Assembly (NCBI RefSeq): GCF_016865445.1
Contig: NZ_AP024412.1
Location: 620,001-684,000 of the forward strand
Source of the DNA: Mariniplasma anaerobium
Lineage (GTDB): Bacteria > Bacillota_I > Bacilli_A > Acholeplasmatales > Acholeplasmataceae
Reading direction: 5' to 3'
Length of the DNA stretch: 64,000 nucleotides
Both the position numbers and the translations under genes were made by a program. Below the pieces are notes generated by a model. The model was not told the origin of the DNA and did no database searches. It saw only the letters and a list, made by a program, of their open reading frames with translations. Numbering within the stretch: the stretch's first letter is position 1; the number at the start of each line of letters is the position of its first letter. This document shows, piece after piece, positions 13,983 through 50,176 of the stretch.

Positions 13983-14906
13983 ATGTCAAAACCAAGAAAA
14001 GATATGAAATATTTAAATGTTAATAGATATTTATTGAATAAGCAATCTAATATAAGTGAAAAAACGGAGTTTTTAGAAGAACAAACTAAAACGATATTAA
14101 ATGATCAAATACATGGTATTAGCTTTAGTCCCTATCTTGATGGACAAGATCCAAGTATTAAATCAATCATTACAAATCAACAAATTAGTGACCGCTTAGA
14201 TATTATAAAACCACATACAAAATGGATTAGAACTTTTTCATGCTCTTGTGGTAATGAAAATGTTCCAAGAATTGCACATGAAAAAGGGCTAAAAACATTT
14301 GTAGGTGCTTGGATTGATAGTGATCTAGAAAACAATGAACTTGAAATAAGCAATGCTATTCGCATTGCAAAAGAAGGTCATGTTGATATGTTAGCGATTG
14401 GTAATGAAGTTCTTTTAAGAAAAGATTTAGACATAGATGAGTTAATTCATTATATAAAAAGAGTAAAGCAAGAACTACCTAATGTTTTAGTTGGCTATGT
14501 TGATGCTTATTATATGTTTATTAATTATCCTGAGATTGTAGATGAATGTGATGTATTATTTGCGAACTGTTATCCATTTTGGGAATACTGCGCTTTAGAT
14601 ATTTCTGTAGAATACATGAAAAAAATGTATCAATTGGTTAGTGAAAATTCAAACGGTAAGAAAGTTATTATAAGTGAAACAGGTTGGCCTACAAAAGGTG
14701 AACAATATGGCGCAGCAATGCCGTCATATGAAAATGCTATGCGTTATTTTATTAACACGATGAAATGGGTTAAAGATGAGCATATCGATTTATTTTATTT
14801 CTCATCATTTGATGAAGTATGGAAAACGAATCATGAAGGCGAATATGGAGCATATTGGGGCCTTTGGGATAAAGATGGAAAGTATAAGTTTAATAAATCT
14901 AAATAA
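13983..14906 (+). CDS. Glycoside hydrolase family 17-like glucanase (1)
   Basis: A 307-residue TIM-barrel enzyme of the GH17 type, which hydrolyses beta-1,3-glucans such as laminarin. IHGISFSPY opens the barrel. The acid/base glutamate is in LAIGNEV (E142) and the nucleophile is in IISETGWPT (E at about 233), both diagnostic. No signal peptide is present, so it should act in the cytosol on imported oligosaccharides. GGAGGG precedes ATG 13983. It is followed closely by a second, related GH17 gene, suggesting a pair with complementary specificity (for example exo-acting or branch-tolerant). No sugar transporter or phosphorylase lies nearby. Confidence 0.85.
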   Translation: MSKPRKDMKYLNVNRYLLNKQSNISEKTEFLEEQTKTILNDQIHGISFSPYLDGQDPSIKSIITNQQISDRLDIIKPHTKWIRTFSCSCGNENVPRIAHEKGLKTFVGAWIDSDLENNELEISNAIRIAKEGHVDMLAIGNEVLLRKDLDIDELIHYIKRVKQELPNVLVGYVDAYYMFINYPEIVDECDVLFANCYPFWEYCALDISVEYMKKMYQLVSENSNGKKVIISETGWPTKGEQYGAAMPSYENAMRYFINTMKWVKDEHIDLFYFSSFDEVWKTNHEGEYGAYWGLWDKDGKYKFNKSK

Positions 14907-14918
14907 AAGGTGAATAAA

Positions 14919-15827
14919 ATGAAACATTTAAAATATGGAAAAGCTATATGCTATTCTGGATACAGGCAAGGGCAAACACCTATAAAAAAAATCTATCCGA
15001 CTTACGAAAATGTATTGGATGATTTAAAAATATTAGAAAAAGATTTTGATTACATTAGAATGTATGATGCGAGTGAGCATGCGAAAATGACATTAGAATT
15101 AATTAAAAAACATAATATAAAGCTTAAGGTGTTATTAGGAATAGATTTACTTGGTGAAGCTAGCAATCCCAATTGTAGCTGGGGTGGAGATTACTCAGTA
15201 GAACAAATCGCAGAGCATATTACTTATAATCAAAAACAATTATATAAAGTCATAGAACTAGCTAATGAATATAAAGATATAGTGATTGGGGTTTCTGCAG
15301 GTAACGAATCAGTTCCTGAATGGAATGAAAATCTTGTTTCACCAGCTAGAGTCTTATATTTTGTTAATGAGCTAAAAAAATACACACAAGTTCCAGTAAC
15401 GTATTGTGATAATAATTATTATTGGAAAGATTTATTAAAAGAAGTAGCTGAAGCTGTAGATTTCATTAGTATTCATCTCTATCCAGTTTGGTTAGGGGCT
15501 AATGTAGAAGAAGCAATAACATCTAGCATAAAAGAATATAATGAAATAAAAGCATTATATCCAGATAAACAAGTGATTATTACAGAAACAGGATGGCCAA
15601 CAAAATCTAATGGTGGTCAAATACCAAAAGAAAATGCAAATGAATTAAATCAGCTATTCTTTAACAATGAATTGGATAAGTATACAAGAGAACATGATAT
15701 CATTTGTTTCTTTTTTGAAGCATTTGATGAAATGTGGAAAGGTTCAAATGCTTTAGATGAACCTGAAAAAAATTGGGGATTTTATTATGACGATCGAACT
15801 CCAAAGAGAATAAAATTGAAAAAGTAA
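14919..15827 (+). CDS. Glycoside hydrolase family 17-like glucanase (2)
   Basis: A 302-residue second GH17-type enzyme. It has YGKAICYSGYRQGQ at the start, SAGNESVPEW (acid/base Glu at about 130) and VIITETGWPTKSNGGQ (nucleophile at about 224). It shares the fold but little detailed sequence with its neighbour, so it is an old duplication or an independently acquired relative. It lacks a signal peptide. ATG 14919 is preferred over GTG 14910 because AAAAGGTG lies 6 bases upstream of it. The two genes form an operon that ends at a strong bidirectional terminator. Confidence 0.85.
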   Translation: MKHLKYGKAICYSGYRQGQTPIKKIYPTYENVLDDLKILEKDFDYIRMYDASEHAKMTLELIKKHNIKLKVLLGIDLLGEASNPNCSWGGDYSVEQIAEHITYNQKQLYKVIELANEYKDIVIGVSAGNESVPEWNENLVSPARVLYFVNELKKYTQVPVTYCDNNYYWKDLLKEVAEAVDFISIHLYPVWLGANVEEAITSSIKEYNEIKALYPDKQVIITETGWPTKSNGGQIPKENANELNQLFFNNELDKYTREHDIICFFFEAFDEMWKGSNALDEPEKNWGFYYDDRTPKRIKLKK

Positions 15828-15833
15828 AATAGA

Positions 15834-15900
15834 AAAAAAGAACTAAATTTATGTGAGAATCAAGTTTGATACACAATCACATTATAATAAGTTCTTTTTT
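15834..15900. terminator. Bidirectional terminator between converging genes
   Basis: AAAAAAGAACT (15834-15844) pairs with AGTTCTTTTTT (15890-15900). Inner stems ATGTGA/TCACAT and ATCAA/TTGAT make a long hairpin. A T-tract is present on both strands, serving the GH17 operon and the minus-strand gene. Confidence 0.85.
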
Positions 15901-16789
15901 ATTTAGTATGATTAAAAAATATAGCTTTAACAAAAATACTTGTATTAATATCAAAGGGCCATTCAAACCATTGGCTCTTTTTTATAGTTCGTGATTTTAA
16001 AAAATGCTCAAGACCATAGTCTCCAATACCAATACCATATGTTTTAACATAATTTGAATGAAACTTAGACATTTGGGTTTCGTCATCTATTATTATTTTG
16101 ATTTTTTGATAAAATTCTGAATTAATTTTAGCTTCAAAAATATCAGATACTACACATAGACGACCAGTATCACTTAGTATTGATGATATATTGAAGTTAA
16201 ATGTTTGAATAACTGTAGGCATTATATCTAGAGCTTGAGATTCAATATAGTTTAATAAATTTTTCGGATAATTTAATGATGAAAGTATAGTAATATCTTT
16301 AAGTATTTGTTGAAGAAGAAGTTGTGTATAAATAGGTGTAACGATTACTACATCATATTTAGTATCGAAAACAAATTTATGTTGCTTGATCTCTTTTTTT
16401 AAGATAGAAAAGTAGGCTTTAATTTCTGATTGGTTTGTAAATGATAACATTTTATTTATAAAATCGTTCCAATAATCACTATGTCTTAACCCTGTATATT
16501 CCATCTCTTTTAATTGGATTTTATGAGCTGCAGATTTATATTTATGTTTTGCTTTTTCTAAAGCTTTTATATCAATATCGGAAAGTGTAATCGTATCAAA
16601 AAGATGTGCAAACACATCAAGATCTATATCATCAAGATTTCCAGCACCTAAAATGATAAGGTTTTTATGTTTGTTTTTAATGCATTCATATAAAAAGGTA
16701 GTCAATCTTTTTCGATAAGATGACCAATTATCAAATCTTTTTATATCAGATGCATTTAGTATTTGATTGAATGCTTTGATTGTGCTCAT
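15899..16789 (-). CDS. SAM-methyltransferase-like protein of unknown substrate
   Basis: A 296-residue protein. Its centre resembles a class I Rossmann methyltransferase: NLIILGAGNLDDIDL (about 43-57) fits the SAM-binding glycine loop, and ITLSDIDIKALEKAK (about 68-82) fits the acidic end of strand 2. The later motifs are weak, so the enzyme may be divergent or inactive. GAGGTT lies before its ATG (complement of 16789). It converges with the glucanase genes and shows no functional tie to them. Confidence 0.6.
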   Translation of the reverse strand: MSTIKAFNQILNASDIKRFDNWSSYRKRLTTFLYECIKNKHKNLIILGAGNLDDIDLDVFAHLFDTITLSDIDIKALEKAKHKYKSAAHKIQLKEMEYTGLRHSDYWNDFINKMLSFTNQSEIKAYFSILKKEIKQHKFVFDTKYDVVIVTPIYTQLLLQQILKDITILSSLNYPKNLLNYIESQALDIMPTVIQTFNFNISSILSDTGRLCVVSDIFEAKINSEFYQKIKIIIDDETQMSKFHSNYVKTYGIGIGDYGLEHFLKSRTIKKSQWFEWPFDINTSIFVKAIFFNHTK

Positions 16790-17107: not shown

Positions 17108-17113
17108 ATGGAA

Positions 17114-17596
17114 ATGAAGTATTTTACTACTTTTGTCACTTTACTATTGATTTATCTGCTTTTAGCAGGTTTTGTAGTAGAAGAAGTGATCTTGGGAAGT
17201 GCAGTAAGTGCGGTATTGACTTTCATATTGTTTAAGTACATTGATTTTAATGTTGATGTAACTTTGCCAATTAAACTGGTCAAATTTGTATTTATTTATA
17301 TCCCAGTATTCATTTGGAAACTACTTCTTGCAAATCTTGATATGGCACGAAGAGTTCTCAGTCCTAAAATCCCTTTAAATCCGGGAATAGTTAAAGTAAA
17401 AACGGATATAAAAAGTGATTTAGGAAAATTAACATTAGCAAATTCAATTACACTTACCCCGGGTACGTTGTCAATTGATGTAGAAGGTGAATATATTTAT
17501 GTTCATAGTGTTGATGTTAAAAACAAAAACGAGGTAGAAATAAGTAAAAATATTTCTGGGCCTTTTGAAAAAATCCTGGGAGGTATCTTTAAATGA
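17114..17596 (+). CDS. mbsA: MbsA/MrpE-like antiporter subunit
   Basis: A 160-residue membrane protein of the MrpE/MnhE family, an accessory subunit of the Na+/H+ antiporter module. N-terminal hydrophobic segments are followed by VKFVFIYIPVFIWKLL, the basic ANLDMARRVLSPKIPLNPGIV stretch (cut at the family motif P-x-x-N-P-G) and LANSITLTPGTLSIDV, all hallmarks. AGGAGG at 17102-17107 indicates ATG 17114, not ATG 17108. It is the first of 13 co-directional, mostly overlapping genes. Their order is that of archaeal mbxABCDFGHH'MJKLN (now called mbs), so this is position A. Confidence 0.9.
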   Translation: MKYFTTFVTLLLIYLLLAGFVVEEVILGSAVSAVLTFILFKYIDFNVDVTLPIKLVKFVFIYIPVFIWKLLLANLDMARRVLSPKIPLNPGIVKVKTDIKSDLGKLTLANSITLTPGTLSIDVEGEYIYVHSVDVKNKNEVEISKNISGPFEKILGGIFK

Positions 17597-17865
17597 TTGA
17601 AGTTATGGATATTGTGGTTTTTTCTTTAATGGGTTTTGGTATTTTATTTACCTTAGTTAGAATGATTAAAGGTCCAAAATTGAGTGATAGAGTTGTATCA
17701 CTTGATACGTTTAATATGATTGTTATTGGTGTAATCGTCGTATTAGCATCTGTATTTAAGAGCAGTTTATATTTAGATATAGCCATTGTTTATGCTATAT
17801 TGGCTTTTCTTGAAACAGTTGTATTTTCTAGATATTTGGAGGGTAAAAACTATGGAAATAATTAG
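17593..17865 (+). CDS. mbsB: MbsB/MrpF-like antiporter subunit
   Basis: A 90-residue MrpF family protein with three membrane segments. The loop LVRMIKGPKLSDRVVSLDTFN (about 17-37) is the MrpF signature (R-x-x-x-G-P-x-x-x-D-R-V-x-x-x-D). Its ATG overlaps the previous stop (ATGA), giving translational coupling. It is a structural part of the ion-translocating module. Confidence 0.92.
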   Translation: MIEVMDIVVFSLMGFGILFTLVRMIKGPKLSDRVVSLDTFNMIVIGVIVVLASVFKSSLYLDIAIVYAILAFLETVVFSRYLEGKNYGNN

Positions 17866-18181
17866 TTATGTTTTTATGACTATAGGAGGCTTATTCTTCT
17901 TTTTAGGTGGACTTGGTGTACTAAGAATGCCAGACACGTTTAATCGAATTCAAGCGGGCACTAAAGCAACTACTTTAGGAGCTTTTTCGATTTTGATAGG
18001 TGTTGCATTTGCGAATCCTAGTTGGACAGCAAAGATTATATTAATTATTGTCTTTATTGCTATTTCTAATCCAATTGGATCAAGTGTAATTGCTAAAGCG
18101 ACATATAAATCAAATAATATACCAGATAATTTGGTTATAGATGATTTGAAAGATAGAGGTGAAGATCATGACAACGTTTGA
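17852..18181 (+). CDS. mbsC: MbsC/MrpG-like antiporter subunit
   Basis: A 109-residue MrpG family protein. GLFFFLGGLGVLRMPDTFNR precedes QAGTKATTLG, the family signature with L-R-M-P-D. There are three membrane segments. The start is ATG 17852, with GGAGGG at 17838-17843; an upstream in-frame start inside mbsB is rejected. It overlaps mbsB by 14 bases. Confidence 0.92.
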   Translation: MEIISYVFMTIGGLFFFLGGLGVLRMPDTFNRIQAGTKATTLGAFSILIGVAFANPSWTAKIILIIVFIAISNPIGSSVIAKATYKSNNIPDNLVIDDLKDRGEDHDNV

Positions 18182-18419
18182 TATCATTTCTTTAGTTGTA
18201 GGAGTCTTATTATTAGTCATAGCTTTTCTAGCTATTAATTCTAAGAAACCAATTAAAGCAGTCATATTTTTATCAGCTTTAAGTATGCTAGCAGTTGTAT
18301 CTTTTGTTTTAATGAAAGCTCCTGATGTAGCTATTACTGAAGCTGTTATCGGTAGTGGTCTAGTAACTGCTCTATTTGTTTTCACTCTATTATCTGTAGA
18401 AAAGAGGGAAGCAAAATGA
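18168..18419 (+). CDS. mbsD: MbsD, DUF4040/MrpA-C-terminal-like subunit
   Basis: An 83-residue three-helix membrane protein corresponding to part of the C-terminal extension of MrpA (DUF4040). In archaeal Mbh/Mbs complexes this is a separate subunit D. LMKAPDVAITEAVIGSGLVTALFV is the family motif (P-D-V-A-x-T-E-A), with a conserved membrane glutamate. The start is ATG 18168, with GAGGTG at 18156-18161. It overlaps both neighbours. Confidence 0.9.
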   Translation: MTTFDIISLVVGVLLLVIAFLAINSKKPIKAVIFLSALSMLAVVSFVLMKAPDVAITEAVIGSGLVTALFVFTLLSVEKREAK

Positions 18420-19129
18420 AAAATCTATTTGGTTTAGTAATTTCAATTATTCTTGGAGTCATTATTATCTTAGCTTTAAGTAATAGTGCATCGTTTCCTA
18501 AATTTGGAGAAGTAGATTTAGCTGATAGAGTTTCTGATCAATATCTTGACCAAGCTAATATTGATGATGTAGGATCTGCTAATATCGTAACTGCAGTAGT
18601 AGTTGGATATCGTGGATTTGATACATTAGGTGAAGTTACAGTGTTATTAATAAGTGCTTTAGGTGTTGCGTTAATACTTGGTGGATCTGGTAAACAAAAA
18701 CGACTTGATTTAAAATTTAAACCTAATTTTATGTTAAGAGTAGGATCAAAAGTATTATTTGTTATTATTTTAATGACAAGTTTATATATCATTCTTCATG
18801 GTCATTTAACTCCTGGTGGAGGTTTCCCTGGTGGAGCTATCATTGCAAGTGCTATTTTATTGATGTATCTTGCTGATGATCAATTCAGAAGTAATATTAA
18901 AGGATTTAAGATTTTAGAAGGAACTGCAGGTAGTCTATTTGTCATTATCGGATTGCTTGGATTATTGTTTGCCAATTATTTCTTACAAAACTTTATACCT
19001 GTTGGAACAGTCGGTTCACTATTAAGTGCTGGTATCATTCCAATCATTTATGTATTAATAGGGTTAAAAGTTGGTAGTGAAATATCTGGAATCGTAGATA
19101 ACTTCCTTACAGAGGAGGAACTTATATGA
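18416..19129 (+). CDS. mbsF: MbsF, fused MbhE-like and MrpB-like subunit
   Basis: A 237-residue membrane protein that joins two modules. The N-terminal part has VGYRGFDTLGEVTVLLISA (about 61-80), the MbhE/MrpA-C-terminal motif. The C-terminal part has LHGHLTPGGGFPGGAI (about 123-138), the MrpB signature. The same E-F fusion explains why the archaeal mbx/mbs cluster has no separate E gene. It overlaps mbsD at ATGA. The ribosome-binding site GAGGGAAG is inside mbsD. Confidence 0.9.
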   Translation: MKNLFGLVISIILGVIIILALSNSASFPKFGEVDLADRVSDQYLDQANIDDVGSANIVTAVVVGYRGFDTLGEVTVLLISALGVALILGGSGKQKRLDLKFKPNFMLRVGSKVLFVIILMTSLYIILHGHLTPGGGFPGGAIIASAILLMYLADDQFRSNIKGFKILEGTAGSLFVIIGLLGLLFANYFLQNFIPVGTVGSLLSAGIIPIIYVLIGLKVGSEISGIVDNFLTEEELI

Positions 19130-19461
19130 TACAATATGCAGCTATAATCTTATTCGTGTTTGGTTTTTATGGTCTATTGACTAATAAAAATGTTATTAAG
19201 ATGATTATTTCATTAAACATTATGGAAATCGGTTTAAATATATTCATCATCAGTATTGGATTTGTTTATGATGGGATTGCTCCTATTATTTCTTCTACAG
19301 TTGATGCAGGGTTAATTTATGTAGATCCTCTTCCTCAAGCATTGGTTTTAACAGCAATTGTTATTGGTGTAGGAACTACAGCGCTAGCTTTAGCAGTAGC
19401 AAAAAGTATTTATTCAAAACATCATACATTTGATTTAGATGAAGTGGAGGAAGCACTATGA
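19126..19461 (+). CDS. mbsG: MbsG/MrpC (NuoK-like) subunit
   Basis: A 111-residue protein with three membrane helices, family MrpC/NuoK. KMIISLNIMEIGLNIFIISIG carries the conserved membrane glutamate, and DPLPQALVLTAIVIGVGTTA is the family hallmark (D-P-L-x-Q-A-L-x-L-T-A-I-V-I). It overlaps both neighbours at ATGA. It contributes to the ion path. Confidence 0.93.
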   Translation: MIQYAAIILFVFGFYGLLTNKNVIKMIISLNIMEIGLNIFIISIGFVYDGIAPIISSTVDAGLIYVDPLPQALVLTAIVIGVGTTALALAVAKSIYSKHHTFDLDEVEEAL

Positions 19462-20834
19462 GCGCGATACTATTAATTGCAATTCCGCTTTTAGCGGCAT
19501 TCTTATCCATTATGTTAAAGAAGTTTGCACCATATCTTTTATTAGGTGTCGGAGTCTTTAATGTTGTTTTATTATTTTTAATTCCTGAAGGGTTTGTTAT
19601 CCTTGGTGGATTTAATCAACCTTTAGGTATTAATTTATTACTTGATACGTATTCAAAGATAGCTTTAATGCTCGTTAATGCAGTGGTTGTTGTTATTGCG
19701 TTTGTAAATATTAAAGAGTACAGTAAGTTTTCAAGTATATTATTAATTGCAATTGCAGGATTAAATGGGTTAATCTTAACTAATGATTTATTTAACTTGT
19801 ATGTATTTTTAGAAATATCTGCAATTGCAGCTTATTTGATCTCAACATCAAATAAGAAACCTGTTAAGACATTTCATTATATAATTATAGGCGCTGTTGG
19901 AAGTAGTTTATTCTTGTTTGGAGTCGTTATTTTATATGCAATGTTTGGAACTCTAAATATGGTTGATTTAATTCAAAAAATACAATTAACCAATAATTAT
20001 TCACAACTTATTTTGCCTTTCTTATTAATGTTTATAGGTCTTGGAGTAGAAGTGAAATTACTTCCTTTCAACTCTTGGGTTAAAGGCGTTTTAGGTGAAT
20101 CTAATACGTTGTCTGGTCCTATGATAGCTAGTGCTTATGCAGCAGCTTTTGGATTTGTATTAGGTAGATTGATTACTAATTTATTCTTATTTGAAGGATC
20201 ATTATTAACAGTTGTTACGGTTATTCTAGCTGTAGGTATTGTTATGGGTGATTTAATGGCGTTTGCATCTAACAAGGCAAGAGAGATATTACTTTATAGC
20301 TCTGTTGCACAAGCAGCGATTGTTGCGATGCTATTTGTTAATGGTATTGTCATATGGGCTGTATATTTGATAGTTGCTAATGCACTAAGTAAGTTAGTTA
20401 TGTTCTTAGTTGTTAATAAAGCAGTTAAAGATGTTGGTAGTGATGAAGTTAATAAACTACAAGGATTATTTTCTAAAAATGTTATAGTAGGTCTAGCTTT
20501 TACTTTGGTAACTTTAAGTGTTATGGGATTGCCTTTATTAGTTGGCTTTACGTTAAAGTTAAGATATTTAACAGAACTTGCGAGTCTTAATCAAATTTGG
20601 CTTATTGCAGTGATCTTAGTTGCTTCACTTATTGAAGGTATATATTTTGTTAAACTCTTATTGAAACTCTGGTATGAAGGACAAGAGAAAGTAGAAGTTA
20701 AATATAATGTCACTTTTAAAGTTGTGTTTGTTATTATCGCAATTGCTTTATTGACATTTGGTACATACTCAACACCTTTAAACAACTTAGATGATTCTAT
20801 AGATACGATTACGGAGGTGGTTAATAATGGCTAA
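19458..20834 (+). CDS. mbsH: MbsH/MrpD (NuoN-like) antiporter subunit
   Basis: A 458-residue antiporter-like subunit with about 14 membrane helices. LFNLYVFLEISAIAAYLI (about 115-132) carries the conserved helix-5 glutamate. GVEVKLLPFNSWVKGVLGES (about 196-215) carries the helix-7 lysine and the broken helix. LLYSSVAQA (about 277-285) is the conserved segment after the second set. This is one of two antiporter-like subunits here, as in Mbs (H and H') and unlike Mbh, which has one. Confidence 0.93.
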   Translation: MSAILLIAIPLLAAFLSIMLKKFAPYLLLGVGVFNVVLLFLIPEGFVILGGFNQPLGINLLLDTYSKIALMLVNAVVVVIAFVNIKEYSKFSSILLIAIAGLNGLILTNDLFNLYVFLEISAIAAYLISTSNKKPVKTFHYIIIGAVGSSLFLFGVVILYAMFGTLNMVDLIQKIQLTNNYSQLILPFLLMFIGLGVEVKLLPFNSWVKGVLGESNTLSGPMIASAYAAAFGFVLGRLITNLFLFEGSLLTVVTVILAVGIVMGDLMAFASNKAREILLYSSVAQAAIVAMLFVNGIVIWAVYLIVANALSKLVMFLVVNKAVKDVGSDEVNKLQGLFSKNVIVGLAFTLVTLSVMGLPLLVGFTLKLRYLTELASLNQIWLIAVILVASLIEGIYFVKLLLKLWYEGQEKVEVKYNVTFKVVFVIIAIALLTFGTYSTPLNNLDDSIDTITEVVNNG

Positions 20835-22653
20835 TATTGAATTATTGATTTTATTTCTAGCTGGGTCAGCTTTGATTAGTTATGTGTTAACAAGATTTAA
20901 TGCAAATATTGGGTCGTTTTTCACAATATTTGTAACAATGTTTGTATTTGTATCACTTGCTGGTTTTGGATTTGCGATGAATTTAGATACAACCGTTAAT
21001 TATTTACCGGGATTCACTTTTTCACAGTCATATCTTGGGTTTTATTTTGTAATCATTATTACCTTTGTTTATTTAATGGTAAGTTTCTTCCATCCTTATT
21101 TTATAAATAAATTTAAATATAGAAGTTCTTATAATTTCTTATTCTTATTAAGCTTAGCAGGTATTATTGGGGCATTTTATACAAATAACTTCCTACAATT
21201 ATTTTTCTTCTTTGAATTAGTTATTTGGACAACAATGTTCTTGATTCCTCAAGGTAAGAGTAGAGAAGCAGCGGTTTCCTATTTTGGATTTTCACTTGCT
21301 GGATCGGTTGCGTTATTATTGGGTATCTTTATGATATTTAGCCAAACTGGAACATTTGATATCAATGCAGGATTAGCTGGTTTAAGTGGAACAACATCAG
21401 TTATTGTATTTATATTGTTCTTAATTGCAGCATTTGCAAAACTTGGAGCTTTTCCACTTCATATTTGGCTTCCTATTGCACATGGTAATGCACCACATCC
21501 ATTTTCTCCAGTTTTATCTGGAGCATTGGTTAAATTAGGTGCGTTTATTGCAATATTTGCATTAATAAAAATTGCACCAAACACACAAACCATTGGAGTT
21601 CTTGATTTACCTCTTGGACATTATATGGTAGCCCTATTAGGTGGCCTATCTATTATCTTTGGGACTTTAATGGCGATCAAAGAAGATGATGCAAAGAAAT
21701 TGTTAGCTTATTCTTCTATGAGTCATGGCGGTTATATATTAGTTGCATTTAGTTTAATGAACGGTCTAGCATTTGCTGGTGGACTATATCATATCTTAGC
21801 ACATGCACTTGCTAGTGCAGGAGCATTTATGGCAATTGCAGCAGTCGCTAGAGTGACTGGCACAACTAAGATGAAAGAAATGGGTGGTATGATTCATAAA
21901 ATGCCTATTACTTATCTAGCTTATTTGATTGCAATTATCTCTATGGCAGGTATTCCACCAATGGGAGGATTCATTTCTAAATGGATTATCTTCCAGGCAG
22001 TTATTGATAAAGGGTTAATCTTTGTTGGTATAGCAGTATTCTTTGGTAGTATTGGTTCATTCTTATACGTGTTTAGACCTTTAGCAGCATTATTCTTAGG
22101 TCAAGAATTAACAGAATATAAACATGTTAAAGAAGCACCAATCTTAATGTTGATTCCAACATTTATCATTATGGGATTAAATATATATACTGGTGTATTT
22201 CCAGCGAAAATATTAGATTTTATAAACAAAATCATTGTAGAAGTTGGCTACGTTCCAATTAGCGTTTCTACATATGCAATTACTGGAGCAAACGATAGTA
22301 TTCTTAATCCAGGATTGATTAGTTTAGTATTTGGCATTGGTGTATTAATTGCGTTTATCATTTTCATCTTATTGAAAAAATCAAGAAAAGTTGAACTAAT
22401 GGATACATATACTGCAGCTAACTTTGTACATGATGAACATCTATTACATTACACAACTGATTTTTATGCTCCTTTAGAAAGACTTTATGAGAAACAAAGT
22501 AATTGGATGACGTTATTCTATCAAGCTTTAGCTCAAAAAGTAAAAGATTTAGGTAGTTTTTGTAAGTATCTGTTTATGTCAAATCACATAGGTAGGACTT
22601 TACTGTGGATTATGCTTATCATAATTGCACTATTGTGGGGTGAAGCACTATGA
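20827..22653 (+). CDS. mbsH2: MbsH' second antiporter-like subunit (NuoL/M family)
   Basis: A 608-residue NuoL/M-family subunit. LQLFFFFELVIWTTMFLIP carries the conserved glutamate. KLGAFPLHIWLPIAHGNAPHPFSPVLSG is the diagnostic antiporter loop (the stretch at about 211-238). KLLAYSSMSHGGYILV and YHILAHALASAGAF follow. A C-terminal amphipathic extension ends in membrane segments. It overlaps mbsH by 8 bases. Its presence matches subunit H' of the archaeal Mbs complex. Confidence 0.92.
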   Translation: MANIELLILFLAGSALISYVLTRFNANIGSFFTIFVTMFVFVSLAGFGFAMNLDTTVNYLPGFTFSQSYLGFYFVIIITFVYLMVSFFHPYFINKFKYRSSYNFLFLLSLAGIIGAFYTNNFLQLFFFFELVIWTTMFLIPQGKSREAAVSYFGFSLAGSVALLLGIFMIFSQTGTFDINAGLAGLSGTTSVIVFILFLIAAFAKLGAFPLHIWLPIAHGNAPHPFSPVLSGALVKLGAFIAIFALIKIAPNTQTIGVLDLPLGHYMVALLGGLSIIFGTLMAIKEDDAKKLLAYSSMSHGGYILVAFSLMNGLAFAGGLYHILAHALASAGAFMAIAAVARVTGTTKMKEMGGMIHKMPITYLAYLIAIISMAGIPPMGGFISKWIIFQAVIDKGLIFVGIAVFFGSIGSFLYVFRPLAALFLGQELTEYKHVKEAPILMLIPTFIIMGLNIYTGVFPAKILDFINKIIVEVGYVPISVSTYAITGANDSILNPGLISLVFGIGVLIAFIIFILLKKSRKVELMDTYTAANFVHDEHLLHYTTDFYAPLERLYEKQSNWMTLFYQALAQKVKDLGSFCKYLFMSNHIGRTLLWIMLIIIALLWGEAL

Positions 22654-23555
22654 TCTTAAATTTATTATTAGGCGTAGGTATTGCATTATTTGGTTTTGTT
22701 TTACAAACTTCACTTGCGGGTGTTAATCGTAAAATCATCGGAAGATTGCAAAAACGTCATGGACCTAAATGGTACCAAGAATTCATTGATATCTTTAAAT
22801 TATTATCTAAAAGAAGTGTTACACATGGTTGGATCTTTGATTTTGGTGTAATTATGGCTCTTGGTGGTATCATTGGTACTGCTATGTTTATGCCACTGAC
22901 AACATCATTCTTAGCTTTTGAAACTTTTGATAATTTCTTTATCTTTGTATATTTAATAGCAGTTGGTATGTTAGGTATGGCAATGAGTGCAAGTGGATCA
23001 GGTAATCCATGGGCAAGTATTGGAGTTATGAGAGCTTTAACAACAATGTTAGCTTATGAAGTTCCATTTTTGGTAGTCATTTTAACAATTATTAAATTAG
23101 CTGATTCGAGTTCTTTAACTCAAATTGCATTATATCAACAAATGGCTGGTAACAATTGGTTTATCATTGCATTGCCACTTGGTGGTATCGTAGCTGTATT
23201 GGCTTTAATGGGTATGCTTGGTAAGAAACCATTTGAAACATATATCGCTCCTGCAGAAATTGCGTCAGGTCCGATGGTTGAATATGGTGGAAAACAACTA
23301 GGTATGTTATTCATTATGCATGAAATTACAGTTTTTATTGAAGTTAGTTTATTTGTTCACCTTTTCTTAGGTGGTGCATCAAATATATTTATCTTCTTAA
23401 TTAAGTACGCTGTCGTTTATACATTTGTAAATCTTATTTCAAATGTTAATGGACGATTTAAAATTGATCAGGTTGTTTTATTCTTCTACAAATGGCCATT
23501 ATTAATGGCTGTTGTACAAGCAATCATAGCAATCTATTTTGGATGGGTGATATAA
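22650..23555 (+). CDS. mbsM: MbsM (NuoH-like) membrane subunit
   Basis: A 301-residue NuoH/complex I subunit 1 homologue that connects the soluble arm to the membrane arm. RKIIGRLQKRHGPKWYQEFIDIFKLL is the N-terminal NuoH loop (R-x-Q-x-R-x-G-P, D-x-x-K). ALTTMLAYEVPFLV and APAEIASGPMVEYGGKQLGM carry conserved Glu residues near the quinone-site equivalent. It overlaps the previous stop at ATGA. Confidence 0.93.
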   Translation: MILNLLLGVGIALFGFVLQTSLAGVNRKIIGRLQKRHGPKWYQEFIDIFKLLSKRSVTHGWIFDFGVIMALGGIIGTAMFMPLTTSFLAFETFDNFFIFVYLIAVGMLGMAMSASGSGNPWASIGVMRALTTMLAYEVPFLVVILTIIKLADSSSLTQIALYQQMAGNNWFIIALPLGGIVAVLALMGMLGKKPFETYIAPAEIASGPMVEYGGKQLGMLFIMHEITVFIEVSLFVHLFLGGASNIFIFLIKYAVVYTFVNLISNVNGRFKIDQVVLFFYKWPLLMAVVQAIIAIYFGWVI

Positions 23556-23556
23556 T

Positions 23557-24135
23557 ATGAAAAGCACAAAATTTACACCGGCAAGCAAATTGTCGAAGGC
23601 AGAAATAGATCGTAAATGGTGGGAAGTTGGTGATTTCTTCAGAAGAAACTCACTCTGGATGTTAATGTATTGTACAGGATGTTGTGCAATAGAATTACCA
23701 CCTGCAATGACATCAGCTTATGATATGGAACGTTTAGGTATGGGGCCAATGGCTACACCTAGACAAGCTGATATTTTGTTAGTATCAGGTTATTTATCAT
23801 TAAAGACATTAAGAAGACTTATTTATACATACGAACAAATGAGTGAACCAAGATATGTGGTTGCTCTTGGTAGTTGTCCTATCAATGGTGGTATTTATCA
23901 TGACTCTCATGCTGTTATTAATAAATTAGATCAATATATTCCTGTAGATGTATATGTTGCAGGATGTATGCCTAATACAGAATCAGTTATGAATGGATTT
24001 GTAGATTTAATGGATCAAATTAAGAGAAAAACAGCTGTTGGTTGGAAAAAATATCATGAAAATAATGCATGGTATAAAGAAAATCAAAAAACTTCACTTG
24101 GGGAGGTAGTTGTCCATGACGAATTCCATGAATAA
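23557..24135 (+). CDS. mbsJ: MbsJ (NuoB-like) [4Fe-4S] small subunit
   Basis: A 192-residue NuoB/hydrogenase-small-subunit homologue. It holds the proximal [4Fe-4S] cluster, with cysteines in YCTGCCAIELPP (about 39-44), LGSCPINGG (about 108) and VAGCMPN (about 138). All four ligand positions appear present. GMGPMATPRQADILLVSG is also conserved. In the archaeal Mbs complex this cluster lies next to the altered catalytic pocket of subunit L. Confidence 0.94.
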   Translation: MKSTKFTPASKLSKAEIDRKWWEVGDFFRRNSLWMLMYCTGCCAIELPPAMTSAYDMERLGMGPMATPRQADILLVSGYLSLKTLRRLIYTYEQMSEPRYVVALGSCPINGGIYHDSHAVINKLDQYIPVDVYVAGCMPNTESVMNGFVDLMDQIKRKTAVGWKKYHENNAWYKENQKTSLGEVVVHDEFHE

Positions 24136-24706
24136 TATAGAGTTTGTAAATGATTTAGTTAAGGGGACTGTTGAAGTTGTTAAAAGCGAAGTTATTGATA
24201 AATTCCAAGTAAGCTTTGAAATTAAGAAAAATGAAGTTCATTTATTATTAACAAAATTAAAGAGTGCTGGTTGGATTCAATTATCTTATTTAAGTGCAAT
24301 TGATTGGTTAGAAGAAAATAAGTTTGAATTAATTTATATTTTAATGAATTGGGAGAAACCAGTATATATTCAAGTTAGAACAAAAATAGATAGAGAAAAT
24401 CCAGTTATGGATTCTATACTACCAATTTTTGGTGGTGCTAAATATTACGAAAGAGAAGCACATGAATTTTTTGGAATTGCTTTTCCTGGAAATCCTGATT
24501 ATGAAAAACAACTTATTCTTGAAGGCTGGGATGATATTCCACCTTTGAGAAAAGACTTTGATCCAAAAGCTTATAGTGATAAGAAATTCCCTCAAAGAGA
24601 TTATCCTCAAGACTATTCAGTTAAGGATCCAAAGGAAAGTAAACAAGCAAAAAGAGAAGCTAGAAAACAAAGAGCTGAATCTTTAAGAGGAGGTAAAAAA
24701 CAATGA
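24116..24706 (+). CDS. mbsK: MbsK (NuoC-like) subunit
   Basis: A 196-residue NuoC-family soluble subunit. It contains YLSAIDWLEENKFELIYIL and the signature YYEREAHEFFGIAFPGNPD (E-R-E-x-x-x-x-F-G-I), followed by LRKDF. The C-terminal 35 residues are a basic, glutamate-rich tail (KESKQAKREARKQRAES) not usual for NuoC. The start is ATG 24116 after GGGAGG. It overlaps mbsJ by 20 bases. Confidence 0.92.
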   Translation: MTNSMNNIEFVNDLVKGTVEVVKSEVIDKFQVSFEIKKNEVHLLLTKLKSAGWIQLSYLSAIDWLEENKFELIYILMNWEKPVYIQVRTKIDRENPVMDSILPIFGGAKYYEREAHEFFGIAFPGNPDYEKQLILEGWDDIPPLRKDFDPKAYSDKKFPQRDYPQDYSVKDPKESKQAKREARKQRAESLRGGKKQ

Positions 24707-25809
24707 AACAAATGAAATTGTTTTTAGGTCCTCAACATCCTGGTATGCATGGTAATGCATCTGTTCATATGTTTGTCGATGGAGATATTATTAAAAAATC
24801 ATATTTATTACCAGGTATGTTACATCGTGGATTTGAAAAAGCTATGGAAAGAAAACTATGGGTTCAAAACATTAGTTTAATACCTAGAGTTTGTGTTCCT
24901 GAGCCAGATATAAATGAAATGGCATATGCAATTGGTGCTGAAAAATTATTAAAATTAGAAGTTCCTGAACGTGCACATTGGATTAGAATGATTATTCTTG
25001 AATTTGCTAGAATATCATCACATCTCATGTCATATGGTGGCCTTGGTGGCCCAACAGGAAATTATACCTTAATGTATCATGCACATGCAGACAGAAACTT
25101 AATTCTTGATATCTTTGAACAAATCACAGGTGCTAGAGTTTATCACCAATACATCGTTATTGGTGGTGTAAGACAAGACTTACCTAAAGGTATTGAAAAA
25201 GACATGCATGAGTTTCTTGACAGTTTAGAATCAAGACTTGGTGAGTATCGTGACTTAGGTGTTGATAACCCATCTATTATTAAGCGTATAAAGGATACTA
25301 TTATGCTTCCTAAAGAAGTTGTTTGGGATTTAGGTGTTACAGGTATTGGTATGAGATCAGCTGTAGGTAAAGCTTATGATTTACGTAAAGTCATGCCTTA
25401 TGCAAGATATGATCAAGTAGAATTTGAAGTACCTACATCTACATATAGCGATGCTAGATGTAGAGTAGATATAAAAATAAAAGAAATTCAACAATCAATA
25501 AATATTATTAGACAGTGTTTAGCTAAAATGCCTGAGGGTGAAGTTAGAGTTAAACCAGGTAGAGGACAGTCTATGCGTTGGACAGTTCCTAAAGGATATG
25601 TATATAGCCCTATAGAATCTTCTAGGGGTGAATTTGGATATTATATGGTTTCAAACGGTGGGACTAATCCTTATCGTATAGGTGTTCGTGGCGCTAGTTA
25701 TCCGCAAGGATTACTAGGTATTGAAAAATATATGCCAGGAACAAGAATTGATGACGCTGCCCTATGGGTAGACACGATGGGTGTATGTTCCCCAGAGATA
25801 GATCGGTAG
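24703..25809 (+). CDS. mbsL: MbsL (NuoD-like) catalytic subunit lacking NiFe cysteines
   Basis: A 368-residue NuoD/hydrogenase-large-subunit homologue. FLGPQHPGMHGN opens the protein, and ISSHLMSYGGLGGPTGNY is typical of the family. NiFe hydrogenases need two CxxC motifs, R-x-C-G-x-C near the N-terminus and D-P-C-x-x-C at the C-terminus. Here the first reads RVCVPEP and the last GVCSPEIDR. Only the first cysteine of each pair is kept, and the second is glutamate in both (C-x-P-E). It therefore cannot bind a normal NiFe centre and is not a hydrogenase. Loss of half the cysteines is reported for the archaeal sulfane-sulfur reductase subunit MbsL/MbxL, which fits the gene order. The substrate (polysulfide or other) is inferred. 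Confidence 0.9.
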   Translation: MKQMKLFLGPQHPGMHGNASVHMFVDGDIIKKSYLLPGMLHRGFEKAMERKLWVQNISLIPRVCVPEPDINEMAYAIGAEKLLKLEVPERAHWIRMIILEFARISSHLMSYGGLGGPTGNYTLMYHAHADRNLILDIFEQITGARVYHQYIVIGGVRQDLPKGIEKDMHEFLDSLESRLGEYRDLGVDNPSIIKRIKDTIMLPKEVVWDLGVTGIGMRSAVGKAYDLRKVMPYARYDQVEFEVPTSTYSDARCRVDIKIKEIQQSINIIRQCLAKMPEGEVRVKPGRGQSMRWTVPKGYVYSPIESSRGEFGYYMVSNGGTNPYRIGVRGASYPQGLLGIEKYMPGTRIDDAALWVDTMGVCSPEIDR

Positions 25810-25818
25810 GTGGATAAT

Positions 25819-27813
25819 ATGGACGAAAAGAAAAAATACCCTAAATCAAGCATATTTAAACCGCTAAGACATTTTAAATATCTATTCAAAAAACCTGTAA
25901 CTCATCCAATGAATACAATTTTTACTAAGAAAAACGCAAGTTATTTAAATGATAATTTATTAATTAAATTAAAATCAAGATTAGACTCTAATCCACGAAC
26001 TGCACCAGATAATTTAAGAGGTTTTCATGTTAACGATTGGTCAAAATGTATTGGTTGTTCAACTTGTGAATCAATTTGCCCAACTGACGCGATTAAAATG
26101 GTTGAAAGAACTGATTTACCTATGGTTGCAGGAGCTTATCAACAAAGACCAGTGATTGATTATGGTAGATGTTGTTTTTGTGGACTATGTGTAGATACAT
26201 GTACAACTGAATCATTAAAAATGAGTAAAGAATATATCTATTCAGACTCTGATCCTGATAGTTTCTTACTGATGCCTGAAAGTACATGGCAAGGTGAAGA
26301 AGTTGAAATAGGTTATGTTAAAAATGCAACAACTGATTTACTTGATTTAAAGAGAATACCTATGGATCATATAGGTGCAGATGAAAGAGTTAAAAGCTAT
26401 ATTGAAGTCATCAGAGGTTATTCTAAAGAATTTGCTAAACAAGAAGCTGCCAGATGTGTTGAATGTGGTGTTTGTACCACAGCATGTCCTGTACAAATGC
26501 ATATACCACAATACATCAAAGCTATTTGGGAAGATGATATTGAAGGTGGCTTGAGAATTATGTATGAAACAAATCCACTACCAGGCGTTTGTGGAAGAGT
26601 TTGCACACATAACTGTGAAACTGCTTGTGCGATCGCTGTAAGAGGCGAAGGTATCGCGATTCGTTGGTTAAAGAGATACATTATTGATAGTGCACCTGAT
26701 GATATGTATGAAAAGATATTTAGCGAACCAGTATCAGAAATCATTGATGCGAAAATCGCAATTGCTGGATCTGGCCCTGCAAGTCTTAGTGCTGCATATT
26801 ATTTAAGAGGACTAGGTTATAAAGTAGATGTATTTGAAGAAAAATCTAGACCAGGTGGCGTCGCTAGTTATGGTGCTCCTCAATATAGAATTCCTGATTA
26901 TGCAGTAGAAAAAGATATTAACTTCATTAAAAAGATTGGTGTTAATTTTAAAACTAATGTAAGAATTGGTAAAGATATCACTTTAGATGAATTAAGTAAA
27001 GATTATGACGCAACGTTCTTAGGTACAGGTTTCTTTAAAGCAAGAAAACTAAACATTCCTGGATCTGATCATATAGATGTTATTGGCGCTATGGACTTCC
27101 TACCTTTAACTAGAGATTTAGCTAGAGGTGATTTGAAAATAGAAGATATTAACGTTAAAGAATCGGCTGTAGTTGTAGGTGGTGGTGATGTTGCATTTGA
27201 TGTAGCAAGAAACTTAATTAGAATACAACTTATGAAATTTGGAAAAGCTGATGTAAAACTTACATCACTTGAAAGCCTAGATATTCTACCTGCTAGTAAA
27301 GAAGAACTTGAAGAAGGTGGCCAAGAAGGTGTTCAATTCCATTTTGGTAATGGACCTCAAGAAATCGTTGTTAACAAGGGTAAAGTTGAAGGCTTAAAAG
27401 TTTGGAAATGTTTAAGTGTCTTTGATGAAGAAGGTAAATTTAATCCTAAATTCGATCAAGCACAAGAATCAATACTTAAAGCTAAACAAGTGTATTTCTC
27501 AATTGGTCAAGCACCAGACTATGATTACCTACCAGAAGACATTCAATCAAAAATAACTTTTGTTAGAGGCAAAATTAAAGCTGATATGAATGGTCAAGTT
27601 GATGGTGTTAAAGGGTTATTTATTGGTGGAGACATTAATAGAGGACCAGATATTATCACAGCAGTATCAGATGGACATAGAGCAGCAATAGGCATTGATG
27701 ATTATCTTTATAAGAAATCTAAGAAAACAGAAGCATCAGATTACTTTAAAGAAATTAGAGAAGCTATTAAAGTCAACAATCCTGATTTAGCTTTAAAACC
27801 AATTAAAAAATAA
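25819..27813 (+). CDS. mbsN: MbsN (NuoI-like) fused to GltD/NfnB-like flavin NAD(P)H oxidoreductase
   Basis: A 664-residue fusion. Residues 1-170 are the NuoI/MbsN part, with two [4Fe-4S] motifs, CIGCSTCESICP (about 77-88) and CCFCGLCVDTC (about 115-125). From about 200 a complete GltD-like module follows: Fe-S cysteines in CVECGVCTTACP and GVCGRVCTHNCETAC, the FAD dinucleotide loop IAGSGPAS (about 315), RPGGVASYGAPQYRIP, a second nucleotide loop VVVGGGDVAFD (about 450) for NAD(P)H, and the FAD-closing FIGGDINRGPDI. Normally MbsN is a small ferredoxin-like subunit. Here the pyridine-nucleotide dehydrogenase is built in, so electrons can pass between NAD(P)H, flavin, Fe-S clusters and MbsJ. 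ATG 25819 is preferred (AGGTGG 5 bases upstream) over GTG 25810. It is the last gene of the operon. Confidence 0.92.
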   Translation: MDEKKKYPKSSIFKPLRHFKYLFKKPVTHPMNTIFTKKNASYLNDNLLIKLKSRLDSNPRTAPDNLRGFHVNDWSKCIGCSTCESICPTDAIKMVERTDLPMVAGAYQQRPVIDYGRCCFCGLCVDTCTTESLKMSKEYIYSDSDPDSFLLMPESTWQGEEVEIGYVKNATTDLLDLKRIPMDHIGADERVKSYIEVIRGYSKEFAKQEAARCVECGVCTTACPVQMHIPQYIKAIWEDDIEGGLRIMYETNPLPGVCGRVCTHNCETACAIAVRGEGIAIRWLKRYIIDSAPDDMYEKIFSEPVSEIIDAKIAIAGSGPASLSAAYYLRGLGYKVDVFEEKSRPGGVASYGAPQYRIPDYAVEKDINFIKKIGVNFKTNVRIGKDITLDELSKDYDATFLGTGFFKARKLNIPGSDHIDVIGAMDFLPLTRDLARGDLKIEDINVKESAVVVGGGDVAFDVARNLIRIQLMKFGKADVKLTSLESLDILPASKEELEEGGQEGVQFHFGNGPQEIVVNKGKVEGLKVWKCLSVFDEEGKFNPKFDQAQESILKAKQVYFSIGQAPDYDYLPEDIQSKITFVRGKIKADMNGQVDGVKGLFIGGDINRGPDIITAVSDGHRAAIGIDDYLYKKSKKTEASDYFKEIREAIKVNNPDLALKPIKK

Positions 27814-46930: not shown

Positions 46931-48628
46931 ATGTCAAAAAGAGTTTTGATTATTGGCGGCGTTGCTGGTGGAGCATCAGTAGCTGCTAGAGTTAGACGAC
47001 TTGATGAACAAGCCGAAGTTACAATGTTTGAAAGAGGGCCATACGTTTCTTTTTCAAATTGTGCATTACCATTTTTCTTAAGTAGAATGGTGCCGCAAAG
47101 TGACGATTTAGTTTTAATGTGTCCAGAACAATTTGCTAAACAATATAATATTAATGCAAAAGTTCATAGTGAAGTCATTGATGTAAAACCTAATGAGCAC
47201 AAAGTAGTTGTTAAGAATGTTTTAACTGGAGAAACCTATGAAGAAGAATACGATAAATTATTCTTTTCACCAGGAGCAAATCCAATTATGCCTAAATCAA
47301 TTAAAGGCATAGATTCTAAACATGTATTTCCTGTAAGAAATGTTCCTGACATTGTTAAAATTGATAATTATATCCATGATAACAAAGTTACGGATGTTGC
47401 AGTTGTAGGTGGAGGATTTATCGGAATTGAAGTCATGGAAAATTTAACTCATGCTGGTATTAAGGTTTCCTTAATTGAAGCAGCTGATCAAATCATGACA
47501 CCATATGATAAAGATATGGCTCAAATCCTACATAAAGAAATTATTGACAACAATGTAGATCTTATTGTAAGTGATGCATTAGCTGAAATCAAAGAAGATT
47601 GTGTTATAACAGCAAATGGTAAAAAAGTTAAAGCACAATTGGTTATTGTTGCAATTGGTGTAGTTCCAGAAGTAAGCTTAGCTAAAAAAATTGGTATTGA
47701 ATTAGGTCAAACTGGTGGTATCAAAGTAGATCATAATTTTAGAACAAATATTAAAGATATTTATGCTGTTGGAGATGCGATTGAATATTATTGCTCATTA
47801 ACACGTAGACCATCAAGACTTACATTAGCTGGACCTGCTCAAAGACAAGCAAGAAGTGCAGCAGATAATATGTATGGTAGAACTATACAAAATAAAGGTG
47901 GCATTGGCTCAAGTTGTGTAAAAATATTTGAACTTAATGCAGCAAATACTGGTCTTAATGAAAAACAATGTTTAGCAGCTGGTATTAAATATGATTATGT
48001 ATATCTTATTCCAGGAGATAGTGTTGGTATTATACCTTCATCAAATCCACTACATGTAAAATTAGTATTTGAAGTTCCAACAGGAAAAATCTTAGGTTGC
48101 CAAGCTATTGGTAAAGGTAACGCTGACAAACGTGCAGATGTTATTGCAGCAATGATTACAATGGGTGGAACGCTTGATGATTTAAAAGAACTAGAATTAT
48201 GTTATTCACCAATCTTCTCAACTGCAAAAGATCCACTAAATCATGCAGCTTTAGTTGCTTTAAATGTTATGAATGGAGAATTCAAACAAGTTAAAGTCTC
48301 TGAAGTCAGAGATATTTATGAAAATGGCGGATATATCATTGATGTTAGAGAACCTAACGAATATGCACAAGGTCATATTAAAAATGCAGTTAATATTCCA
48401 ATGAGCCAATTTAGACAAAGATTAGATGAAATACCTAAGGATAAGGCAGTTTATGTACATTGCCGTTCAGCTCAAAGAAGTTATAATGTAGCTAGAGCAC
48501 TTGGACAATTAGGATTTGATAATATTTATAATATTTCAGGATCTTATATGGGTATTTGTTATAATCAATATTTTGAAGATGTAACATTAAAGAGAACTAA
48601 AATTGTAACAGAATACAATTTTAAATAA
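46931..48628 (+). CDS. cdr: CoA-disulfide/persulfide reductase with rhodanese domain
   Basis: A 565-residue FAD and NAD(P)H disulfide oxidoreductase of the CoADR-rhodanese type (NAD(P)H-dependent persulfide or polysulfide reductase). FAD loop VLIIGGVAGGASVAARVRR. The single redox cysteine lies in SFSNCALP (C44), the family's S-F-x-N-C-x-L-P. The NAD(P)H loop is VAVVGGGFIGIEVMENL, and IYAVGDAIE closes the FAD site. Residues about 460-560 are a rhodanese domain whose loop reads VHCRSAQRS (C about 511), for sulfane-sulfur transfer. The enzyme uses NAD(P)H and CoA to reduce persulfides or elemental sulfur. A related CoA-dependent NAD(P)H sulfur reductase works beside Mbx in Pyrococcus. It is followed 21 bases later by a sulfur transporter. 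Confidence 0.93.
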   Translation: MSKRVLIIGGVAGGASVAARVRRLDEQAEVTMFERGPYVSFSNCALPFFLSRMVPQSDDLVLMCPEQFAKQYNINAKVHSEVIDVKPNEHKVVVKNVLTGETYEEEYDKLFFSPGANPIMPKSIKGIDSKHVFPVRNVPDIVKIDNYIHDNKVTDVAVVGGGFIGIEVMENLTHAGIKVSLIEAADQIMTPYDKDMAQILHKEIIDNNVDLIVSDALAEIKEDCVITANGKKVKAQLVIVAIGVVPEVSLAKKIGIELGQTGGIKVDHNFRTNIKDIYAVGDAIEYYCSLTRRPSRLTLAGPAQRQARSAADNMYGRTIQNKGGIGSSCVKIFELNAANTGLNEKQCLAAGIKYDYVYLIPGDSVGIIPSSNPLHVKLVFEVPTGKILGCQAIGKGNADKRADVIAAMITMGGTLDDLKELELCYSPIFSTAKDPLNHAALVALNVMNGEFKQVKVSEVRDIYENGGYIIDVREPNEYAQGHIKNAVNIPMSQFRQRLDEIPKDKAVYVHCRSAQRSYNVARALGQLGFDNIYNISGSYMGICYNQYFEDVTLKRTKIVTEYNFK

Positions 48629-48649
48629 AAAAAATAACACGGAGGAAGT

Positions 48650-49946: not shown

Positions 49947-50176
49947 AATATATTAGAAAACATATGGTAATTTTATCCTAAATCATATATAATAAATAAG
50001 AGTAATACATACAGTTAAGAAAATTTAAATTAAAAAAAATAAACCAAAATATAAGCGTATGAAGAGGTTTTTTTATAATTTAATTTATATATATATCAAA
50101 TTGAGTTTGTGATAAGACTAAATTGAAAGGGAATTATACTTAAAAAAGTTAAATATTTTTTTTGTATATAAAAACT

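What the first reader, a model, noticed from the sequence alone, without database searches (positions are those of the whole stretch)
17114..27813. A 13-gene Mbs/Mbx-type ion-pumping complex in a low-GC bacterium
Subunits in order are MrpE, MrpF, MrpG, DUF4040, MbhE+MrpB fusion, MrpC, MrpD, a second NuoL/M, NuoH, NuoB, NuoC, NuoD and NuoI. This is the A-B-C-D-F-G-H-H'-M-J-K-L-N order of the archaeal mbx (now mbs) cluster, including the E-F fusion and the second antiporter subunit that separate it from hydrogenase (mbh) clusters. It implies a respiratory, ion-pumping sulfur or redox complex in an organism that otherwise looks fermentative, and probably ancient transfer.
Basis: partly seen in the sequence, partly recalled or inferred. 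Interest (0 to 1): 0.8.

Follow-up and report, generated by a model that had tools for sequence, protein, structure and literature searches.

The report
Ion-pumping Mbx complex in wall-less bacteria
A fermenting, mycoplasma-related bacterium carries a 13-gene membrane machine related to complex I that probably links ferredoxin and NAD(P)H to sodium pumping; the type is known from Thermotoga, but this lineage carries altered key residues that argue against the sulfur-reducing job assumed for its archaeal cousin.

Summary
The 13 genes are there (17108-27813, one strand, mostly overlapping), in the archaeal mbx/mbs order, with the E-F fusion and a second antiporter subunit. Subunit L falls with Mbs/Mbx, apart from complex I and [NiFe] hydrogenases. 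The same order recurs in Thermotogota, Clostridia, Bacteroidota, Acidobacteria, Aminicenantes and many mollicute-related genomes; the nearest kin are bacterial, not archaeal, and such clusters are already published for Thermotoga and Thermoanaerobacter. What looks new is lineage-specific. (i) J has CTGCC, i.e. complex I's tandem Cys, where Mbs and Thermotoga-type Mbx have CTGCG, so the open-iron cluster of Mbs catalysis is probably closed. (ii) The nucleotide motif YRR is replaced by SLE. (iii) Pump H lacks its central Lys, while H' is intact. No menaquinone prenyltransferase was found in 13 genomes. Favoured mechanism: a Na+-pumping ferredoxin:NAD(P)+ oxidoreductase; rival: a sulfane/disulfide reductase. 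The operon has moved between mollicute lineages. A cultured relative (X. coldseepsis zrk13), published as having 'complex I', carries this complex and makes the question testable.

The parts
17108..17596 (+). mbxA (MrpE-like)
   Evidence: PF01899 E 8e-38
17593..17865 (+). mbxB (MrpF-like)
   Evidence: PF04066 E 5e-18
17849..18181 (+). mbxC (MrpG-like)
   Evidence: PF03334 E 5e-25
18159..18419 (+). mbxD (MbhD/DUF4040)
   Evidence: PF13244 E 3.5e-18
18416..19129 (+). mbxF (MbhE+MrpB fusion, the E-F fusion of Mbs/Mbx)
   Evidence: PF20501 at 34-86 and PF04039 at 106-223 of one protein
19126..19461 (+). mbxG (MrpC/NuoK-like)
   Evidence: PF00420 E 1e-24
19458..20834 (+). mbxH, antiporter-like subunit; lacks the central TM8 Lys (MbsH K250) and MbsH H330
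   Evidence: PF00361; best PDB hit 6u8y_H; residue counts
20827..22653 (+). mbxH', second antiporter-like subunit with horizontal helix; pump residues intact
   Evidence: PF00361; best PDB hit 6u8y_X; E130, K205, K236, H322, K385 conserved in 37/37 clade I rows
22650..23555 (+). mbxM (NuoH-like membrane anchor)
   Evidence: PF00146 E 4e-54
23557..24135 (+). mbxJ (NuoB-like), proximal-cluster subunit with CTGCC motif (C39, C42, C43, C107, C137)
   Evidence: PF01058; best sequence and fold hit MbsJ 6u8y_J; motif comparison
24110..24706 (+). mbxK (NuoC-like)
   Evidence: PF00329 E 1.5e-28
24703..25809 (+). mbxL (NuoD-like), no [NiFe] site: H16, C64 (CVPE) and C362 (CSPE)
   Evidence: PF00346; best PDB hit MbsL 6u8y_L E 1.4e-78; motifs; tree
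25810..27813 (+). mbxN-NfnB fusion: MbxN dicluster ferredoxin (8 Cys) + NfnB-type module (8 more Cys, FAD, NAD(P) domain with 'TSLES' in place of YRR)
15899..16789 (-). conserved neighbour: ~300-aa methyltransferase-like protein of no named family, next to mbx in 12 of 24 loci examined
   Evidence: neighbourhood clustering, alignment, weak methyltransferase hits

Best explanation
A bacterial Mbx complex of the complex I superfamily, in a Mollicutes-related Bacilli genome. Shown by sequence: a membrane arm with an Mrp-type Na+/H+ antiporter module and two antiporter-like pumps (H' intact, H altered); a cytoplasmic arm of J, K, L and an N subunit fused to an NfnB-type flavoprotein; no [NiFe] site; the canonical quinone Tyr absent. 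Inferred: FAD and four [4Fe-4S] sites in the fusion plus the J cluster form one redox chain, and electrons run downhill from reduced ferredoxin (pyruvate oxidation) to NAD(P)+ at the NfnB flavin. The energy is passed through the J/L/M/H' loops to pump ions, finally Na+, which the Na+-type F-ATP synthase uses. The NAD(P)H made could feed soluble sulfane reductases (a CoADR-rhodanese gene and a YeeE-type sulfur transporter lie 19 kb downstream), so sulfur use would be indirect. How the J cluster is drawn into a ferredoxin-to-NAD(P) path is the unproven step.
For: NfnB module present in every complete or near-complete Mbx N examined, in all phyla, whereas the cavity residues vary. Best structural matches of the fused module are NfnL subunits. 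In this lineage the proximal cluster gains a fourth Cys, one change on the tree, so MBS-type catalysis at an open Fe is unlikely (PMC7684303). No UbiA/MenA in 13 genomes and no CydA in the own genome, so a quinone acceptor is unlikely. Own genome has [FeFe] hydrogenases with NuoF-like partners, Rnf genes, NfnAB, and an F-ATPase c subunit with GQG...AET..Y, which matches the known Na+ motif; relatives are predicted to have Na+ F-ATPases (PMC10308030). The 13-gene mbx of Thermoanaerobacter was discussed as a Fd:NAD(P)+ oxidoreductase (PMC3608648).
Against: In complex I relatives coupling depends on chemistry at the J/L cavity; electrons going from N to NfnB need not visit J. T. maritima mbxA is induced by sulfur (PMC9431562). 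CoA-disulfide reductase genes lie beside mbx in five Izemoplasmataceae loci. The genome already has Rnf and NfnAB, which could do the same redox work. No biochemistry exists for any bacterial Mbx in the papers found.
Confidence: 0.45

Rival explanations
1. Sulfane/disulfide reductase: electrons from ferredoxin and/or NAD(P)H (via the NfnB module) go to polysulfide or an organic disulfide in the J/L cavity, as in archaeal MBS, with ion pumping.
For: Same subunit plan and best hits to MBS; MbsL C85/C385 equivalents kept as C64/C362; T. maritima mbxA up with S0 (PMC9431562); CoADR-rhodanese plus YeeE in the same window and CoADR beside mbx in f16 loci; thiosulfate promotes growth of zrk13 (PMC8397711).
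Against: The fourth Cys C43 removes the three-Cys, open-iron coordination that makes the MBS cluster catalytic (PMC7684303). A family member without a reported complex of this kind, Peloplasma, is also stimulated by sulfur with only trace sulfide (PMC11122141), so the phenotype does not need Mbx.
Confidence: 0.3
2. The same enzyme run in reverse: the Na+ gradient drives NAD(P)H to ferredoxin electron transfer to supply low-potential electrons.
For: Complexes of this superfamily are often reversible (general knowledge); the genome has other Na+-linked and ferredoxin-linked machines.
Against: A sugar fermenter makes surplus reduced ferredoxin; in zrk13 genes annotated as NADH-ubiquinone oxidoreductase are up-regulated together with ATP synthase in rich medium (PMC8397711).
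Confidence: 0.12
3. NAD(P)H:quinone oxidoreductase, a complex I analogue, as annotated for X. coldseepsis zrk13.
For: Tandem Cys in J and the Nqo4 His38 equivalent (H16) in L are complex I-like; HR1-size, zrk13-size and one Acholeplasmataceae genome carry CydA.
Against: Nqo4 Tyr87 is Val in the window, no UbiA-family prenyltransferase in 13 genomes, and no CydA in the own genome.
Confidence: 0.06
4. Membrane-bound [NiFe] hydrogenase (Mbh).
For: Shared Mrp/MbhD/MbhE modules.
Against: Both CxxC pairs are broken, and L is a separate clade.
Confidence: 0.01

Closest known systems
Bacterial 13-gene MBX of Thermotoga maritima and Thermoanaerobacter (PMC9431562, PMC3608648)
   Same: 13-gene cluster; in Thermotogota loci fetched here the same gene order, N-NfnB fusion, H16, C64/C362 and SLE-type nucleotide motif
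   Different: Thermotogota J has CTGCG (three-Cys type), this lineage CTGCC; this lineage is mesophilic and mollicute-related, and often carries a methyltransferase-like neighbour
Archaeal MBS (P. furiosus, PDB 6u8y)
   Same: Order A-B-C-D-F-G-H-H'-M-J-K-L-N, E-F fusion, two antiporter subunits, L retains two of four NiFe Cys
   Different: MbsN is 208 aa with no flavoprotein; MbsJ has a three-Cys proximal cluster; MbsL lacks the His38 equivalent; MbsH has the central Lys
Respiratory complex I (Nuo/Nqo)
   Same: Homologous core, tandem Cys in J as in NuoB, His38 equivalent in L, a nicotinamide-dehydrogenase module attached
   Different: Module is NfnB-type on N, not NuoEFG; Mrp Na+ module; no Tyr87; separate L clade; no quinone pathway found
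NfnAB / Nfn-ABC transhydrogenases
   Same: The fused C-terminal module is NfnB-like (TM 0.87-0.90 to NfnL)
   Different: No NfnA partner in the operon; YRR motif replaced by SLE with a short insert; a separate NfnAB exists in the genome

Membership tests
Bacterial Mbx | 13-gene order with E-F fusion and H, H' | tested here: met
Bacterial Mbx | N fused to NfnB/GltD-type module, as in Thermotogota/Clostridia loci | tested here: met
   NF010590
Bacterial Mbx | L nested with Thermotogota/Clostridia Mbx | tested here: met
   trees
Bacterial Mbx | Enzymatic activity | not testable with these tools
   no assay data found for any bacterial Mbx
MBS (sulfane reductase) | Gene order and subunit homology | tested here: met
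MBS (sulfane reductase) | L keeps C85 and C385, lacks the other two NiFe Cys | tested here: met
   C64, C362
MBS (sulfane reductase) | Proximal cluster with three Cys ligands (CTGCG) | tested here: not met
   CTGCC, C43 extra; ligation itself inferred, not measured
MBS (sulfane reductase) | N a free dicluster subunit | tested here: not met
   667-aa fusion versus 208 aa
Complex I | NuoEFG module and quinone Tyr87 | tested here: not met
   operon ends with the N-NfnB fusion; Y87 -> V
Complex I | Tandem Cys in NuoB | tested here: met
   C42-C43
Mbh / group 4 [NiFe] hydrogenase | Two CxxC pairs in L | tested here: not met
   CVPE and CSPE
Electron-bifurcating Nfn | NfnA partner subunit in the complex | tested here: not met
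   none in the operon; NfnA sits with a separate NfnB at G000:C1:1249-1251 kb

The most novel reading that the evidence does not exclude
A distinct, quinone-free branch of the complex I superfamily, spread by transfer among wall-less bacteria and relatives, that independently acquired complex I's tandem-cysteine proximal cluster and a nicotinamide module and works as a Na+-pumping ferredoxin:NAD(H) oxidoreductase. The old 'Mbx = Fd:NAD(P)' model, dropped for archaea, would then hold in bacteria.
Probability: 0.3. Interest if true: 0.7.

Novelty: new variant of a known kind. Interest (0 to 1): 0.5.

Why it matters
Mbs/Mbx complexes are used as the link between hydrogenases and complex I. A bacterial branch with an NfnB module in the place where complex I has its NADH module, and in one lineage the tandem cysteines thought special to complex I, is a natural experiment on how the coupling site works without quinone. 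It also implies that the 'complex I' reported in cultured Izemoplasma zrk13 is a different enzyme, which changes that organism's energy budget and can be tested in culture.

Tried and rejected
Hydrogenase: ligand cysteines absent. Quinone reductase: no UbiA hit, Tyr87 absent. Direct archaeal acquisition: nearest kin are bacterial, and only one archaeal L sequence was available (P. furiosus from the PDB; long branch, placement unsure). Simple vertical inheritance: window plus its congener MO-XQ as one clade is rejected (p-AU 5e-7). Promoter and terminator scans were not above shuffles and are uninformative. The papers searched do not mention the N-NfnB fusion; the subscription literature of the Adams group (e.g. 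Wu 2018) is not held, so the fusion may already have been noted there. AlphaFold coordinates could not be read, so Cys geometry was not measured. The methyltransferase-like neighbour could not be assigned to a family.

Full report
Observation. The E-F fusion is real: MbhE at residues 34-86 and MnhB at 106-223 of one 237-aa protein. The correction is the last gene: 667 aa, GTG start, with an MbxN/NuoI dicluster ferredoxin (C80, C83, C86, C90; C121, C124, C127, C131) followed by an NfnB/GltD-type module (C216, C219, C222, C226; C261, C265, C269, C273; FAD and NAD(P) domains). All 16 Cys are invariant in 38 homologues. The NCBIfam family is NF010590. The predicted structure (pLDDT 82) matches P. 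furiosus and T. maritima NfnL best (TM 0.87-0.90 normalised to the target).

Which family. Best PDB sequence hits for L, J, H, H' and the N-terminal part of N are P. furiosus MBS chains. In a tree of 75 L proteins the Mbs/Mbx rows form one clade (SH-aLRT 100), apart from complex I and group 4 hydrogenases. Both CxxC pairs of [NiFe] hydrogenases are broken (CVPE, CSPE), leaving the same two cysteines as MbsL C85/C385.

Relatives. A scan of 85,000 species genomes gave 77 loci with relatives of L. About fifty show the Mbx layout as far as the contigs reach, with the N-NfnB fusion wherever N is complete: mollicute-related bacteria, Vallitaleaceae, Peptococcaceae and other Clostridia, Thermotogota, WOR-3, Bacteroidota, Aminicenantes, Acidobacteria. 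The tree nests the mollicute-related rows inside Clostridia and these inside Thermotogota. The single archaeal sequence is a long branch, so archaeal origin is neither shown nor excluded. In the window's order 7 of 150 genomes have L; in its class 20 of 395 match, 18 of them closely (72% or more, window included) and mostly in two other families. Three of the four other genomes of the genus lacked a match in the L searches; the fourth, with the length of MO-XQ, carries the operon (L004). The concatenated tree (3579 columns) puts the window with another family, and window + MO-XQ as one clade is rejected (p-AU 5e-7). The operon moves between lineages. GC of the operon is 0.30-0.33, slightly above the flanks.

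Lineage-specific residues. (i) J: the window has CTGCC. PfMbsJ, Thermotogota and most Clostridia Mbx have CTGCG, Bacteroidota/Aminicenantes/Acidobacteria GTGCG, and complex I a tandem CC (GLACC and similar). In MBS the proximal cluster has three Cys ligands, and its open iron is the proposed catalyst (PMC7684303). C43 aligns with Nqo6 C46, so four-Cys ligation is likely here (inference). On the L tree the state changes once, at the branch to Vallitaleaceae, Peptococcaceae and the mollicute-related rows. (ii) L: H16 aligns with Nqo4 His38, which is absent in MbsL; Tyr87 is Val. (iii) NfnB module: YRR, kept in Bacteroidota-type Mbx and in NfnB, is replaced by SLE-type residues with a short insert in Thermotogota, Clostridia and mollicutes. 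I read this as a change away from the usual NADP(H) site, perhaps to NAD(H); this is inference, since some YRR proteins were solved with NAD. (iv) H: the central Lys (MbsH K250) is absent in 35 of 35 clade I rows and present in or next to the column in 9 of 11 of the other clade, whereas H' keeps all pump residues in 37 of 37.

Genome context. Targeted searches found Rnf genes at two loci, an F-type c subunit with GQG...AET..Y (matches the Na+ motif as known from Ilyobacter, own knowledge) and a V-type one, two [FeFe] hydrogenases with NuoF-like partners, and a separate NfnAB. There is no UbiA in 13 genomes including HR1-size and zrk13-size ones, and no CydA in the own genome although HR1-size, zrk13-size and one other have it. 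The contig length of G193 equals the published zrk13 genome (1,958,905 bp). That paper calls its genes complex I and reports NADH-ubiquinone oxidoreductase genes up to 20-fold up in rich medium. Within the window, 46931-49885 encodes a CoA-disulfide reductase-rhodanese protein and a YeeE/YedE transporter. In T. maritima nsr, mbxA, yeeE and rnfC respond together to sulfur or thiosulfate (PMC9431562).

Mechanism. The invariant NfnB module and the variable cavity residues favour nicotinamide/ferredoxin chemistry as the core reaction, with ion pumping through H', the altered H and the Mrp module. The weak point is coupling: in known relatives the J/L cavity is where chemistry drives pumping, and a ferredoxin to NAD(P) path need not reach it. 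A sulfane or disulfide acceptor in the cavity therefore remains a serious rival, and CoADR neighbours in five relatives keep it alive. I put 0.45 on Fd:NAD(P)+, 0.3 on sulfane/disulfide, 0.12 on the reverse reaction, 0.06 on quinone.

Neighbour. A ~300-aa methyltransferase-like family without a name abuts or flanks mbx in 12 of 24 loci. In several Izemoplasmataceae loci it immediately precedes mbxA on the same strand; in the window it is divergent, 319 bp away. Its role is unknown.

Verdict. A sound observation; partly right interpretation; a known kind of complex with a distinct, little-noticed variant in mollicute-related bacteria.

Noticed in passing
window 15899-16789 (-): Unnamed ~300-aa methyltransferase-like family (invariant PIYTQL, YGxGxG) next to mbx in 12 of 24 loci, often immediately upstream of mbxA; no Pfam/NCBIfam family over cut-off.
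   Followed up: partly
window 46931-49885 (+): CoA-disulfide reductase with C-terminal rhodanese domain, followed by a YeeE/YedE-type sulfur transporter, then a taurine-like ABC transporter (50162-52684): a sulfur locus in the same window.
   Followed up: partly
G000:C1:1244000-1255000 (L123): Separate NfnAB pair beside an amino-acid-oxidase-like HcnABC-type cluster and an aldehyde dehydrogenase.
   Followed up: no
L118, L121, L016, L116, L117 downstream of mbx: CoA-disulfide reductase-like genes close to mbx in Izemoplasmataceae (NF007123 over cut-off for the L118 gene).
   Followed up: partly
L020 and L023 upstream of mbx: ArsR-family regulator directly upstream of Thermotogota and Clostridia mbx, a possible counterpart of archaeal SurR control.
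   Followed up: no
window 13983-15827 (+): Two tandem GH17-like glycoside hydrolases upstream of the complex.
   Followed up: no
window 53992-58155 (+): 1387-aa multi-PAS GGDEF-HD signalling protein, large for a mollicute relative.
   Followed up: no
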